Below are positions 19,658 through 51,754 of a stretch of 64,000 nt of DNA, in pieces. The notes below the pieces were generated by a model. The model saw nothing but the letters and a program-made list of their open reading frames with translations. It had not been told where the DNA came from and made no database searches. The position numbers and the translations under genes were made by a program. Source of the DNA: Cytobacillus oceanisediminis 2691 (lineage in GTDB: Bacteria; Bacillota; Bacilli; Bacillales; Cytobacillaceae). The stretch spans positions 1 through 64,000 of the forward strand of contig NZ_VEEP01000012.1 of the NCBI RefSeq assembly GCF_007678455.1, written 5' to 3'. Numbering within the stretch: position 1 is the first letter of the stretch; every line of letters begins with the position of its first letter.

Positions 19658-19800
19658 TTACCCAGAAAGCTATTTATGGTGTCTTACAAGGTTATGATAT
19701 GAAATCATTCAACCTATGAAGCCGTGAATTTCTTTCATACCCCTTGATTCTTTATGGGCAAACTAGGATGTTGAATGGAAGACGGTATCTGGACAAAATA

Positions 19801-19832
19801 AAAAGAAGGTCCCTAAGGAACCTTCTTTTTTC
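19801..19832 (-). terminator. Intrinsic terminator after cspC
   Basis: On the plus strand AGAAGGTCCC and GGAACCTTCT pair around TAAG with one wobble; on both sides A/T runs allow termination in either direction. Confidence 0.8.
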
Positions 19833-19845
19833 AACAAGACTAATA

Positions 19846-20046
19846 TTATAGTTTTGTTACGTTAGCAGCTTGTGGTCCGCGAGCGCCTTGCTCAACGTCG
19901 AAAGATACTTTTTGACCTTCGTCTAATGATTTGAAGCCTTCAGATTGGATAGCAGAGAAGTGTACGAATACGTCGTCTCCACCTTCGCGCTCGATGAATC
20001 CAAAACCTTTTTCTGCGTTAAACCATTTTACTGTACCTTGTTCCAT
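19846..20046 (-). CDS. cspC: Cold shock protein, CspC-like
   Basis: A 66-residue single-domain cold shock protein, a five-stranded barrel that binds single-stranded nucleic acid. RNP1 (KGFGFIE) and RNP2 (VFVHF) are intact, and the [18 protein letters not shown] start and [20 protein letters not shown] end match Bacillus CspC closely. TAGGAGG precedes the ATG. A leader region upstream is AT-rich, as is usual for cold-regulated genes. Confidence 0.96.
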
Positions 20047-20365
20047 TACTGTTACCTCCTAGTGCAATTCGCACAAATGTTACTATCCTTGCCCAAAGTG
20101 ATCATTAAGACGAAATAATTTCTATCCTTTACACCGAACAAAAATAATTCTATTTCATCATATCAGATACTGGAATCAATAGCAAACACAAACAAGAGAT
20201 TTCGTCCTATTGTCCTATCTTGAGCAAGTGTTCCTTTTAAATATCATACAGATAACCTGGTTTTTTCTACCTTTTGAATGATGTAAAACTTCTTGACCAT
20301 TGTTTTTTCCTTCAGGACTCGGAATCAGTAGAATGTCCATCTAAAAAAAACAAATAATAAAAGGA
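20047..20365. other. Leader of cspC and divergent promoter region
   Basis: No gene was seen. The part next to cspC should contain its promoter and long 5' leader, which in this family carries cold-responsive structure. The right part is upstream of the 20383 gene. I could not assign a specific motif. Confidence 0.4.
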
Positions 20366-25756: not shown

Positions 25757-25876
25757 ATTTTTTCCTCCAACGCTTCATCACCAAACAGTATATGTCCGAT
25801 GCTTGTCTATATGACCTCATCCTTTTAAAGTTTGCTATAATTATAGGAAAACTGCAGGATGAACAGAGGTTTGAGC

Positions 25877-26590
25877 ATGACTAAATTATTAGAATCCGAT
25901 CTATACGAACCGATCAGGAAGCATTTTTTAAAACAGGGGTACCGAGTCAATGGAGAGGTCCATGATTGTGATTTAACAGCATTAAAGGATGATGAACTTA
26001 TCATCGTAGAGTTAAAGCTGACATTTAATATTGAACTGCTCCTTCAGGCAACGAGAAGACTGCGCCTTACTGATATGGTGTATATAGCAATCCCAAAACC
26101 GAAGCGGATATCAAGGAGACGCTGGAATGATGTCATCCACCTGGTAAAAAGGCTGGAAATCGGCCTGATTGTCGTAACGTTTGCCGGAAATCGAAAAACC
26201 ATTGAATTTAAGGTTCACCCAGAACCATTCAATCGCAAGTCGAGCAAGAACCGGCGAAAAAAAGCGGCTTTGATCAAAGAAATTGAGGGAAGAAGCGCTG
26301 ACTACAATGTCGGCGGAAGTAATAAAAGCAAGATCATGACCGCATATAAAGAAAATTGTATCCAAATAGCCTGTTATCTTGAGAAACTTGGGCAGATGTC
26401 ACCTAAAGCACTCGTGGCACTCGGGACCGGCGAAAAGACCCCATCAATCCTCCAGAAAAACTACTATAAATGGTTTGAAAGAGTCGAGAGAGGCGTATAT
26501 GCACTTTCAGACCAGGGACAGGCAGACCTAAAGGATTTCCCTGAACTCGTAGCGTATTATTCAGGGAATCTGGAAGAGCCTAGTCAATGA
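25877..26590 (+). CDS. DUF2161 family protein, PD-(D/E)XK nuclease-like
   Basis: A 237-residue protein of the DUF2161 family. The N-terminal half has a PD-(D/E)XK-like core: CDLTALKDDELIIVELKLTF, with an Asp, then the ExK pair in VELK, then a QATRRLRLTDMVYIAIP helix-strand. The C-terminal half (QMSPKALVALGTGEKTPSIL, then FERVERGVYALS) looks like a winged-helix DNA-binding part. The start at ATG 25877 follows AGAGGTTTGAGC; an earlier in-frame ATG at 25859 is possible. Nuclease activity is inferred from the motif only. A tandem hairpin array starts at the stop codon. Confidence 0.8.
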   Translation: MTKLLESDLYEPIRKHFLKQGYRVNGEVHDCDLTALKDDELIIVELKLTFNIELLLQATRRLRLTDMVYIAIPKPKRISRRRWNDVIHLVKRLEIGLIVVTFAGNRKTIEFKVHPEPFNRKSSKNRRKKAALIKEIEGRSADYNVGGSNKSKIMTAYKENCIQIACYLEKLGQMSPKALVALGTGEKTPSILQKNYYKWFERVERGVYALSDQGQADLKDFPELVAYYSGNLEEPSQ

Positions 26591-26988
26591 TATGTGCCCG
26601 GACTGAGAGAGAATCGCAAAAACCGGGCACATACAGAAAGGATATGTTCCCGAACTGACGGGAAAACGCAAAAACGGGGCACATAAAGAAAGGATATGTG
26701 CTCGAACTGAAGGGGAATTGCCAAAACGGAGCACGTAAAAAAAGAATATGTGCCCGAACTGAAGTAAAATCGCAAAACGGGGCACATAAAAGAGGGATAT
26801 ATTCCCGAACTGACGGGGAATCGCAAAAACGAGGCAAATAAAGGAAGGATATGTGCTCGAACTGAAAGTGAATTGCCAAAACGGGGCACGTAAAAAAAGA
26901 ATATATGCCCGAACTGAAGTAAAATCGCAAAAACGGGCCACATAAAAGAAGGATATGTTACCGGAATCACAAAACGGGATAAATAATG
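26589..26988. repeat. Tandem array of 52-bp hairpin repeats (array A)
   Basis: Seven full units of 51-53 bases and one partial unit start at 26589, 26641, 26693, 26744, 26796, 26848, 26899 and 26952. Each has the arm ATATGTGCCCG, a loop close to AACTGACGGGAATCGCAAAA and the arm CGGGGCACAT. Units 2-4 and 5-7 match in order, so a three-unit block of about 155 bases was duplicated. Unit 3 changes GTGCCC to GTGCTC and its partner GGGCAC to GAGCAC, keeping the stem. The array has no credible gene; open frames crossing it are by-products of the repetition. Confidence 0.9.
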
Positions 26989-27003: not shown

Positions 27004-27051
27004 AAAAAGCACAGACAGAAAATCAATGTTGATTTCTGCCCGTGCTTTTTT
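27004..27051. terminator. Bidirectional terminator
   Basis: AAAAAGCAC, GACAGAAAATCAA pair with TTGATTTCTG and GTGCTTTTTT as one long stem with few mismatches. It separates the repeat array from the minus-strand regulator gene. Confidence 0.8.
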
Positions 27052-27058
27052 AGTTTAT

Positions 27059-43959: not shown

Positions 43960-44069
43960 TTCTTATCTGCCAAGTTTTTAAAAACTTGCTGGAATTAGCA
44001 CCTTTTCAACAATGTTGAAGGTTGCTGAAGCTTCATAGGGCCAGGACCCTCAGCTTCTCTCGATAAGAT
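43960..44069 (-). ncRNA. SAM-I (S-box) riboswitch
   Basis: On the minus strand the aptamer reads CTTATCGAGAGAAGCTGAGG, GTCCTGGCCCTATGAAGCTT, CAGCAACC, later AAGGTGCTAATTCCAGCAAG and closes with CAGATAAGAAG. The conserved SAM-I blocks (GAGAGNNGNTGAGGGA-like, ATGAAGCTTCAGCAACC and GGTGCTAATTCC) and the P1 stem CTTATC/GATAAG are present. Bound SAM should favour the terminator at 43915 and switch off metI-metC-yitJ-metH. Confidence 0.96.
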
Positions 44070-50420: not shown

Positions 50421-50510
50421 CTTGTGGCAGCTTCCGGATGGGGCTGTTTTTTTATATTCAACATCAGGAACTATTTTGATATAGTAGGAGGGATTAAAGG
50501 GGGAGCAGCA

Positions 50511-51587
50511 GTGAATCATAAAAAAACGGTGAAAATATTACTCGCCATCCTTATGGCTTATTTTATTTTGCCAAATCTAGTTTCAGCTCATAATGGTTCA
50601 CGAGATGAACTTGGTGGGCATTTCCGTAATGCGGATTGCACCTATTTCCTTCATGAACCAACTTCATTGGCGAAAAGTGCAGCAAATATAGATGAACTGA
50701 TCCGTCTGATACAGGTGTATAACAATAATTCCGGTTGTGCCGATGGGTTGAGTGAAGGAAAGATCGATCTGGAGGGATATACTTTTCAGGGAGAAGGAGG
50801 AGCGGCTTCAAAACCAACTGAAAACTCGGTTCCTAAAGCAGCACTTGCAACTGGCAAATTGCAAATTGGCAAAACGTATGAAGCAGAATTAAAAGATTGT
50901 ACTGACGGGGATACCGCCGTCTTTACGATCAACGGAAAAGACTATAAAACTCGTTTTCTATACATAGACACTCCAGAAAGCACAAGGACAAAGGAGCCGT
51001 TTGGACATGAGGCTGCTCAGTATACCTGTTCCTTTTTAAAACAGGGGGAAATCACACTAGAAACTGATGGCTCCAGCCTGTTCGATAAATATGAACGACT
51101 TCTGGCCTGGGTTTGGGTAGATGACAAACTTCATCAGGAAGCAATCACGAAAGCAGGTCTTGTAGAAGACTTTTACGATTACGGCAGCTATAAATACGAA
51201 AACCGGATCTGGTCAGCGATGGAGTTTGCAAAAGAAAACGGAAAAGGAATGTATGCCGGGGAAGGAAACACATCCCGCCCAAAAGATTCTGCAGACGATT
51301 CACCCAAAGGGCAGGAAAGCGAAAATAGTGAAGGGACAAAAGATGCTGACGAGCTAAATTGTGGATTTTTAAGCGGCCTTTTGTTCGCACTGTTATTTTA
51401 CCTGACAGTCCCATTCAAGAAATCCCTAGGAAAGCCAACACTGATCGCCCACCGAATGTGGGGTGAAAAATGGTGGCTTAACCTATTGCTCGGAATTCTT
51501 TACGCATTATTGTGCTACATAACATTACTTTTATTGCTTGTGGAATTACTCCCTCTTCTAAAAAGTAATAAGCGCAGACGGTCATGA
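50511..51587 (+). CDS. Exported, membrane-anchored thermonuclease-family protein
   Basis: A 358-residue protein. GTG 50511 follows AAAGGGGGAGCAGC. A signal peptide ends near NLVSAHNGS, followed by a short module with HNGSRDELGGHFRNADC that resembles a degenerate YHYH-type segment. The SNase domain (about residues 120-250) has CTDGDTAVFTI, TRFLYIDTPESTR, EPFGHEAAQYT and YERLLAWVWVD, holding the Asp, Arg and Glu expected for activity. A polar linker leads to two C-terminal helices (FLSGLLFALLFYLTVPF and the LLLGILYALLCYITLLLLLV stretch). It should sit on the cell surface. A repeat array overlaps the stop. Confidence 0.85.
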   Translation: MNHKKTVKILLAILMAYFILPNLVSAHNGSRDELGGHFRNADCTYFLHEPTSLAKSAANIDELIRLIQVYNNNSGCADGLSEGKIDLEGYTFQGEGGAASKPTENSVPKAALATGKLQIGKTYEAELKDCTDGDTAVFTINGKDYKTRFLYIDTPESTRTKEPFGHEAAQYTCSFLKQGEITLETDGSSLFDKYERLLAWVWVDDKLHQEAITKAGLVEDFYDYGSYKYENRIWSAMEFAKENGKGMYAGEGNTSRPKDSADDSPKGQESENSEGTKDADELNCGFLSGLLFALLFYLTVPFKKSLGKPTLIAHRMWGEKWWLNLLLGILYALLCYITLLLLLVELLPLLKSNKRRRS

Positions 51588-51737
51588 CGGACAAATATCT
51601 CCGGGATTCTCGCAAAACTGTCCGTCATTGAGGGCATGATGGACAAAAAACTCTAGGATACTCACAAAACTGTCCGTCATCGAGGGCATGATGGACAAAA
51701 AACTCCGAGATACTCGCAAAACTGTCCGTCATCATAA
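51582..51737. repeat. Tandem array of 52-bp hairpin repeats (array B)
   Basis: Three units of exactly 52 bases start at 51582, 51634 and 51686. Each has the arm ATGACGGACA (or ATGATGGACA), a loop ending in GATACTCGCAAAAC and the arm TGTCCGTCAT. The loop shares AACT, a G-rich purine step and TCGCAAAA with array A at 26.6 kb, and the period is the same, but the stem sequence is entirely different. The first unit begins within the stop-codon region of the nuclease gene. Confidence 0.9.
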
Positions 51738-51754
51738 TGTTGACGGACAGTTTA
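51722..51754 (+). terminator. Intrinsic terminator made from the last repeat arm
   Basis: CTGTCCGTCA and TGACGGACAG are perfect arms around TCATAATGT, followed by TTTAATAAACTTTT. The left arm is the right arm of the third repeat unit. Confidence 0.75.

What the first reader, a model, noticed from the sequence alone, without database searches (positions are those of the whole stretch)
51582..51750. A second 52-bp hairpin array shares the loop of the first but has a different stem
Array B has exactly the same 52-base period as array A 25 kb away. Its loop (AAACTCCGAGATACTCGCAA, AAC) shares AACT, a purine step and TCGCAAAA with array A's loop, while the stem is GACGGACA/TGTCCGTC instead of GTGCCCG/CGGGGCAC. 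A constant loop and period on exchangeable stems at unrelated loci suggests a repeat family in which the loop is recognised and each locus carries its own arm. This resembles neither CRISPR nor REP elements that I know. Both arrays start at the stop codon of a gene with nuclease features (DUF2161 and SNase), which may be chance.
Basis: partly seen in the sequence, partly recalled or inferred. Interest (0 to 1): 0.78.

Follow-up and report, generated by a model that had tools for sequence, protein, structure and literature searches.

The report
Five-turn palindromic satellite array in Mesobacillus
This is one of many short repeat arrays, all with the same 52-base unit, in this soil bacterium's genome; the class is published but unexplained, and here its odd fixed length looks like exactly five turns of the DNA helix carrying paired protein-binding half-sites.

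Summary
The array is real: three 52-bp units plus a half-site at 51584-51749, built as arm 10, gap 25, arm 10, linker 7. It belongs to a published class, the constant-52-nt tandem repeats of Bacillus (Subirana & Messeguer 2021, PMC8161180), which names selenatarsenatis, boroniphilus and subterraneus; the same arms occur in these Mesobacillus species, so the window is probably Mesobacillus. That paper leaves function and length unexplained. But different-stem families share a design. A/T runs recur once per helical turn, five per unit (z 10.3 in 40 other-stem arrays; z 5.1 on 27 published consensuses). G(A/C)C(A/C)-25 bp-(G/T)G(G/T)C half-sites occur in 21 of 39 other-stem arrays. B arms show no compensatory change and no significant G-U strand bias; one superfamily keeps a fixed-polarity mismatch. 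37 of 55 gene ends facing an array have a terminator in between; 3 of 48 arrays lie between divergent genes. Best reading: DNA-level docking or wrapping arrays, perhaps like BIME-2 gyrase sites. That function is inferred; modelled net curvature was not clearly above control.

The parts
51584..51628 (+). Array B unit 1: ATGACGGACA, 25-bp gap, TGTCCGTCAT; its TGA (51585-51587) is the stop codon of the SNase gene
51636..51680 (+). Array B unit 2: ATGATGGACA, 25-bp gap, TGTCCGTCAT
51688..51732 (+). Array B unit 3: ATGATGGACA, 25-bp gap, TGTCCGTCAT
51740..51749 (+). Terminal half-site TTGACGGACA, in register (fourth 52-bp step)
50424..51587 (+). Upstream gene with a staphylococcal nuclease domain (PF00565); arrays with the same arms follow its orthologue in nine other genus members looked at besides the same-species genome
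52027..53337 (+). Downstream gene, sensor histidine kinase (HisKA, HATPase_c)
26589..26963 (+). Array A: same 52-bp period, stem TATGTGCCC/GGGCACATA with 25-bp gap (GCCC-25-GGGC core in the consensus); four relatives elsewhere in this genome by DNA similarity over 100 bp or more
25859..26590 (+). Gene before array A, DUF2161 (putative PD-(D/E)XK)
27004..27052 (.). Hairpin with A-run before and T-run after, a likely bidirectional terminator beyond array A (read by eye)
   Evidence: sequence; my script's stricter rule did not call a terminator here

Best explanation
Array B is a member of the constant-52-nt tandem repeats of Bacillus. Shown by computation: the unit is a piece of double helix with inverted half-sites (in about half of the other-stem arrays G(A/C)C(A/C) and its near-complement, 25 bp apart) and short A/T runs recurring every 10.4 bp, so that a unit is five helical turns and successive units present the same face. 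The constraint looks like DNA sequence and helical phase, not base pairing. Most gene ends that face an array have their own terminator before it, and spaces between divergent genes are avoided. Inferred: a protein (a dimer that polymerises along one face, or an enzyme that wraps DNA such as gyrase) docks on the half-sites and bends or wraps the phased segment, making a topological or nucleoid-organising site between transcription units; copy number changes by unequal exchange while arms are kept by selection. Which protein binds, and the biological effect, are not shown.
For: Class membership: period 51-53 is the commonest array period in 864 kb of this genome (35 arrays: 1 at 51, 29 at 52, 5 at 53) and in 400 kb of G018 (13), and the published class names selenatarsenatis, boroniphilus and subterraneus. 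Phase: 5th harmonic (10.4 bp) of A/T runs of 3 or more, against tandem-preserving block permutation: z 11.6 in 72 B arrays, 6.8 in 17 others, 10.3 in 40 non-B arrays with k=5 the largest harmonic in 20 of 40 against 11% expected; published consensuses of other species z 5.1, k=5 largest in 11 of 27. Half-sites: GMCM-N25-KGKC in 15 of 28 own non-B arrays and 6 of 11 in G018; any other gap from 12 to 40 gives at most 2 in either set; permuted 0.23 and 0.09. Published consensuses: GACA-25-TGTC in 4 of 27, GAC-27-GTC in 6 of 27 with at most 2 at any other gap; inverted arms in 21 of 27 against 5.6 shuffled. Not pairing: Watson-Crick cells 3077 against 3079.7 (sd 4.2) after within-array shuffling, G-T 53 against A-C 52 (327 units); GCCC-25-GGTC with fixed polarity in 33 of 37 units of 8 arrays, the other 4 symmetric, none reversed. 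Selection on arms: 0.88 against 0.54 identity. Place: intrinsic terminator between gene and array at 37 of 55 facing 3' ends; divergent spaces 3 of 48 arrays against 23% of intergenic bases, p 0.005.
Against: A recalled dinucleotide wedge model gives hardly more net bend than tandem-permuted controls (65.5 against 60.5 degrees per 104 bp, 23 of 40 non-B arrays; 63.1 against 55.8, 6 of 9 B arrays), so strong intrinsic curvature is not supported. With runs of 4 or more the signal is weaker (k=5 z 4.4, k=6 z 3.8). In B arrays other harmonics rise too (k=6 z 6.0, k=1 z 5.0, k=3 z 3.3), and B arrays share ancestry (several of the loci are orthologous). 13 of 28 own non-B arrays, 5 of 11 in G018 and 21 of 27 published consensuses lack the half-site geometry. 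The two arrays of G082 (another family of the order) have GACA at 27, not 25, and no k=5 maximum. Terminator frequency before arrays is not significantly above control genes (37 of 50 against 385 of 641, p 0.07). Arrays A and B themselves begin at stop codons, so they probably are transcribed. With one random unit per array, Watson-Crick cells are slightly more than after shuffling (886.3 against 883.3, higher in 81% of 500 draws). Array A has one compensated stem pair in unit 3 (by eye) and a symmetric GCCC/GGGC core. The arm-against-gap comparison is biased upward for arms, because units were found by their arms (up to 3 of 10 substitutions allowed); gaps too are above the shuffled level (0.54 against 0.31). 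The E. [quoted passage not shown] No binding protein was identified.
Confidence: 0.52

Rival explanations
1. RNA-level: the arrays are transcribed in 3' regions and act as tandem hairpins (transcript stabilisers, antisense-facing terminators, small RNAs or protein sponges).
For: Both window arrays follow a stop codon and their first three units fold strongly as RNA (array B z -6.1 on + and -4.0 on -; array A -5.3 and -5.5). Satellites of this class were found in RNA-seq of B. coagulans (PMC8625621, section 3.2). In co-directional B arrays the purine strand is sense in 18 of 22. The pyrimidine strand of the B consensus reads hairpin then CTTTTTC.
Against: No covariation within arrays and no G-U preference in 327 B units; T-G against C-A 27 to 17 arrays, p 0.17. 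A fixed-polarity mismatch in the second superfamily. 37 of 55 gene ends have their own terminator before the array. Purine sense 23 of 35 over all families is like control 126 of 204. No terminator called in array B. Strong folding follows from any palindrome.
Confidence: 0.2
2. Neutral or selfish satellites: a replication or recombination process favours amplification of segments of whole helical turns, and arrays persist where they break no promoter.
For: Copy number and gap sequence turn over at one site (1 to 9 units); avoidance of divergent spaces fits tolerance.
Against: Arms kept across species while the gap between them changes; the same half-site spacing recurs in several stem families and in other species, which slippage alone does not predict.
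Confidence: 0.2
3. REP/BIME-type mobile palindromes moved by a REP-associated tyrosine transposase.
For: Extragenic palindromes in many copies.
Against: The genome holds one Y1_Tnp match and its 3.3-kb locus holds no B arm, no GMCM-25-KGKC core and no 52-bp array; a 52-bp period and a 25-bp gap are not REP features (PMC3733652 passages: elements tagged GTAG or CGTC, loops of 4-5 bp in CGTC families).
Confidence: 0.04
4. CRISPR-like array.
For: Regular direct repeats with intervening segments.
Against: The intervening segments are alike within each array, and the period and palindromes recur at many places.
Confidence: 0.01

Closest known systems
Constant-52-nt tandem repeats of Bacillus (Subirana & Messeguer 2021, PMC8161180)
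   Same: Period 51-53, many families per genome, non-coding, a short sequence and its reverse often in one repeat; same genus listed, with repeats shared by selenatarsenatis, boroniphilus and subterraneus.
   Different: The paper finds no sequence conservation and no explanation of 52, and a word search of its text finds no curvature, A-tract or terminator. Here a shared phase, a recurrent half-site spacing and a genomic placement are found. Array B (3 units) is below their four-repeat threshold.
BIME-2 / REP elements as gyrase sites in E. coli (PMC6379681, passages)
   Same: Extragenic palindromic arrays; gyrase there prefers DNA with phased 10-bp G/C variation and binds some BIME-2 independently of transcription.
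   Different: No sequence kinship was looked for beyond the REP features tested; Gram-positive host, fixed 52-bp unit, no evidence here of gyrase binding.
Phased A-tracts of bacterial nucleoids (PMC3940949, start of abstract in a search listing)
   Same: A/T runs in phase with the helix.
   Different: Here seen in the tandem arrays and not in 530 other intergenic segments of these stretches.
20-21-nt tandem repeats (same paper, PMC8161180)
   Same: Whole number of turns (two); present in this genome too.
   Different: Different sequences and period; not analysed here for half-sites.

Membership tests
Constant-52-nt tandem repeats of Bacillus | Repeat length 51-53 nt | tested here: met
Constant-52-nt tandem repeats of Bacillus | Several families of different sequence in one genome | tested here: met
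   about nine stem types, sorted by eye, among 35 arrays
Constant-52-nt tandem repeats of Bacillus | Non-coding, intergenic | tested here: met
   1 of 48 arrays overlaps a called gene by more than 40 bp
Constant-52-nt tandem repeats of Bacillus | Short signal and its reverse in the same repeat | tested here: met
   window arrays A and B both; over all, inverted arms at p<=0.05 in 32 of 49 arrays
Constant-52-nt tandem repeats of Bacillus | At least four repeats (the authors' detection threshold, not a biological criterion) | tested here: not met
   array B has three units and a half-site; array A has seven copies
REP / BIME with RAYT | Unpaired GTAG or CGTC tag at one end, small loop | tested here: not met
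   by eye: B gap is 25 bp in one register and 7 in the other; no unpaired GTAG tag; a CGTC does occur, but inside the paired arm
REP / BIME with RAYT | Transposase flanked by the repeats | tested here: not met
   one Y1_Tnp match in the genome, no repeats in its 3.3-kb locus
BIME-2 gyrase sites (works like) | Gyrase binding | not testable with these tools
   needs Topo-Seq or a binding assay
CRISPR array | Unique spacers | tested here: not met
   intervening segments alike within arrays
CRISPR array | Adjacent cas genes | not tested
   only the eight neighbouring genes were scanned against Pfam; none of those is a cas gene
RNA structural element | Compensatory changes or G-U strand bias | tested here: not met
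   a slight excess of pairs with one unit per array and one compensated pair in array A by eye

The most novel reading that the evidence does not exclude
All 52-nt arrays of the Bacillaceae are one kind of DNA device: a five-turn ruler in which a protein, perhaps gyrase or a single polymerising nucleoid protein, reads GRCM-type half-sites 25 bp apart across helically phased A/T runs, giving these bacteria a self-made counterpart of BIME-2 that separates transcription units topologically; stem families differ because the outer bases of the half-site drift while the core and the turn count are held.
Probability: 0.25. Interest if true: 0.85.

Novelty: new member of a known kind. Interest (0 to 1): 0.55.

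Why it matters
[quoted passage not shown] A shared five-turn phase, a recurrent 25-bp half-site spacing, arms conserved without pairing and a place usually behind terminators turn that into a testable DNA-binding problem, with a ready substrate (B-type units) for pull-down and half-turn spacing tests in harmless soil bacteria.

Tried and rejected
Rejected: locus-specific stems; nuclease co-occurrence; RNA hairpin selection as the main constraint; transcription-strand orientation as a general rule (B 18 of 22, but 23 of 35 over all families against control 126 of 204); strong net curvature; comparison of 10.4-bp power with non-repetitive DNA as proof, because tandem repetition alone raises all harmonics of 52 (the tandem-preserving permutations were used instead); convergent placement as a general rule (35 of 73 in a set largely picked by B arms, 10 of 48 in the unpicked set; 16 arrays at contig or locus edges were dropped from the first set); REP/RAYT; presence or absence of B arrays as a lead to a protein (G008 lacks B but holds other 52-nt arrays). 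A loop matrix alone does not find the right register in 32 of 42 arrays.

Cautions: the GMCM-25-KGKC pattern was formed by eye on the arrays, G018 included, so searches are not blind. Table 1 of the paper was read after the pattern was fixed (then 62, 64), though I had compared some of its rows by eye before running. The array set contains the C221 and window arrays already used. 'Non-B' means no TGACGGACA within one mismatch. In one search only arrays with two or more matching units were counted, which leaves out window array A. The 93 B arrays are not independent: several loci are orthologous, although no two multi-unit arrays are identical. (0.89 against 0.54 over 268 pairs) included the same-species genome and one chance match in G017; one search redoes it without them.

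Searches in print. The 2020 J. Bacteriol. paper of the same authors is not held, so whether it mentions A-tract phase is unknown to me.

Full report
WHAT IS THERE. At 51584-51749 lie three units of arm (10), gap (25), arm (10), linker (7), and a fourth-step half-site. The first arm holds the stop codon of a gene with a staphylococcal nuclease domain. Array A at 26589-26963 has the same period with another stem.

HOW COMMON. The B arm pattern has 48 matches at 15 places in this genome and none for the reversed control. It occurs in 21 of 121 genomes searched including its own: 17 of 20 of the genus counting its own, and 4 of 101 outside the genus (64, 3, 1 and 1 matches). A scan of named genomes returned 86 stretches, of which 80 were listed; the names are Mesobacillus subterraneus, selenatarsenatis and boroniphilus, several Bacillus sp. 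isolates, Metabacillus litoralis SaN21-6 and one isolate labelled Chryseobacterium. From this the window is probably Mesobacillus. Without choosing a stem, Tandem Repeats Finder gives 35 arrays of 51-53 bp in 864 kb of this genome, 13 in 400 kb of G018, and 1 in 638,759 bp from 40 pieces of 40 genomes outside the genus. Scaling up, some 200 arrays per genome (inference).

ALREADY KNOWN. Subirana and Messeguer (PMC8161180; abstract and all five parts of the main section read) describe exactly this class: repeats of 52 nt (and 20-21 nt), many families per genome, short signals often with their reverse in the same repeat, no explanation of the length. They list selenatarsenatis and say its repeats are shared with boroniphilus and subterraneus. 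A second paper (PMC8625621; abstract, sections 3.2 and 4 read) reports transcription in B. coagulans. A word search of the first paper finds no curvature, A-tract or terminator.

STEM AND LOOP. In 373 B units of 93 arrays the arms are nearly invariant, with one position that varies often (a CG step, mostly to TG or CA), while the gap varies. The purine-strand consensus over 93 arrays is ATGACGGACA GAAAT nnnn GGAAA nnnn GAAAAAG TGTCCGTCAT CAAGG. Downstream of the SNase orthologue in the genus, arrays with the same arms stand at the same place in G121 (same species), G013, G018, G007, G006, G019, G001, G005 and G017 and, degenerate, in G009, with 1 to 9 units; G008 has none there. The remaining loci were not examined at this site. 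Between species arms are 0.88 and gaps 0.54 identical over 202 unit pairs, arms above gaps in 28 of 28 species pairs, shuffled gaps 0.31; units were found by their arms, which favours the arms. So the arms are what selection holds most.

ONE DESIGN BEHIND SEVERAL STEMS. A/T runs (3 or more, no TA step) in the B consensus fall about 10 bp apart. Against permutations of the unit that keep the tandem repetition, only the fifth harmonic of 52 (10.4 bp) clearly stands out in other stem families: z 6.8 in 17 arrays, z 10.3 in 40 arrays (next k=7, 2.1), with k=5 the largest harmonic in 20 of 40 against 11% expected. In B arrays k=5 is highest (z 11.6) but k=6, 1 and 3 rise too. In G008 and G011 it is largest in 4 of 5 arrays, in G082 in 0 of 2. 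On the 27 published consensuses of other Bacillus species z is 5.1 and k=5 is largest in 11. With runs of 4 or more the signal is weaker (z 4.4, with 3.8 at k=6), and a recalled wedge model gives no clear excess of net bend. Hence helical phase is shown, strong curvature is not.

HALF-SITES. G(A/C)C(A/C)-N25-(G/T)G(G/T)C is present in 15 of 28 own non-B array consensuses and 6 of 11 in G018; any other gap from 12 to 40 gives at most 2 in either set. In the published consensuses GACA-25-TGTC occurs in 4 of 27 and GAC-27-GTC in 6 of 27 (coagulans twice, litoralis twice, oceanisediminis, alkalitelluris); 21 of 27 lack it. In the GMCC type, units read GCCC-25-GGTC on the purine-rich strand in 33 of 37 cases in 8 arrays; 4 are symmetric and none is reversed. 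This is a conserved mismatch in the supposed stem. Window array A, with a symmetric core, is not among the 37.

DNA OR RNA. Within B arrays, Watson-Crick pairs are no more frequent than after shuffling right arms among units of an array (3077 against 3079.7, sd 4.2; 327 units), and G-T equals A-C (53 and 52). With one random unit per array there is a slight excess of pairs (886.3 against 883.3, higher in 81% of draws). One compensated pair was seen by eye in unit 3 of array A. RNA folding is strong on both strands of both arrays, as any palindrome gives. No terminator is called in array B.

PLACE. Of 48 arrays in unpicked stretches, 35 are co-directional, 10 convergent, 3 divergent; divergent spaces hold 23% of intergenic bases (p 0.005), while convergent placement is not in excess (p 0.33). 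Of 55 gene 3' ends facing an array, 37 have an intrinsic terminator in between, 13 with room have none, and 5 are closer than 25 bp; control gene ends 385 of 641. Genes and terminators were called by scripts of mine, so boundaries are approximate.

MECHANISM. Sequence-conserved arms without pairing constraint, a fixed distance, whole helical turns and placement mostly behind terminators together favour a protein that reads double-stranded DNA and needs its sites on one face. E. coli gyrase prefers DNA with phased 10-bp G/C variation, is enriched downstream of termination sites of active units (though the authors say this seems not hard-wired in the sequence) and binds some BIME-2 independently of transcription (PMC6379681, passages); this makes gyrase, or a polymerising protein as the discoverers of the class suggested, the first things to test. 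This last step is inference.

Noticed in passing
own genome, for example C221:253478-253677, 205231-205362, 129787-129909: Many 20-21-bp tandem arrays (TATAGCGAC, TCGCCAATAAA types), the second published length class, two helical turns; 25 arrays in 864 kb.
   Followed up: partly
C221:390496 and C111:331554 arrays (L062:9500-10444, L256:10578-11486): Two of 20 genes preceding arrays encode NERD (nuclease-related) proteins.
   Followed up: no
window 19800-20229 (-) and 43960-44069 (-): cspA thermoregulator and SAM riboswitch matches.
   Followed up: no
L073, L076, L079 and others: Contigs labelled Chryseobacterium sp. ISL-80 carry Mesobacillus-type B arrays; probably a mislabelled or mixed assembly.
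   Followed up: no
L261, L263, L268 (G008): A genus member without B-pattern matches has its own 52-bp families with a different unit (GTAACGCAAGAGC type), k=5 largest in 3 of 4.
   Followed up: partly
L209:6590-6903 and the G082 stretch: 52-bp arrays with ATGACAATCT/AGATTGTCAT arms in another family of the order: GACA core again, but 27 bp apart.
   Followed up: partly
SNase orthologues downstream of which B arrays stand (for example L175, L177): In several species the gene's stop codon TGA is part of the first arm, so array and coding end overlap (read by eye).
   Followed up: partly
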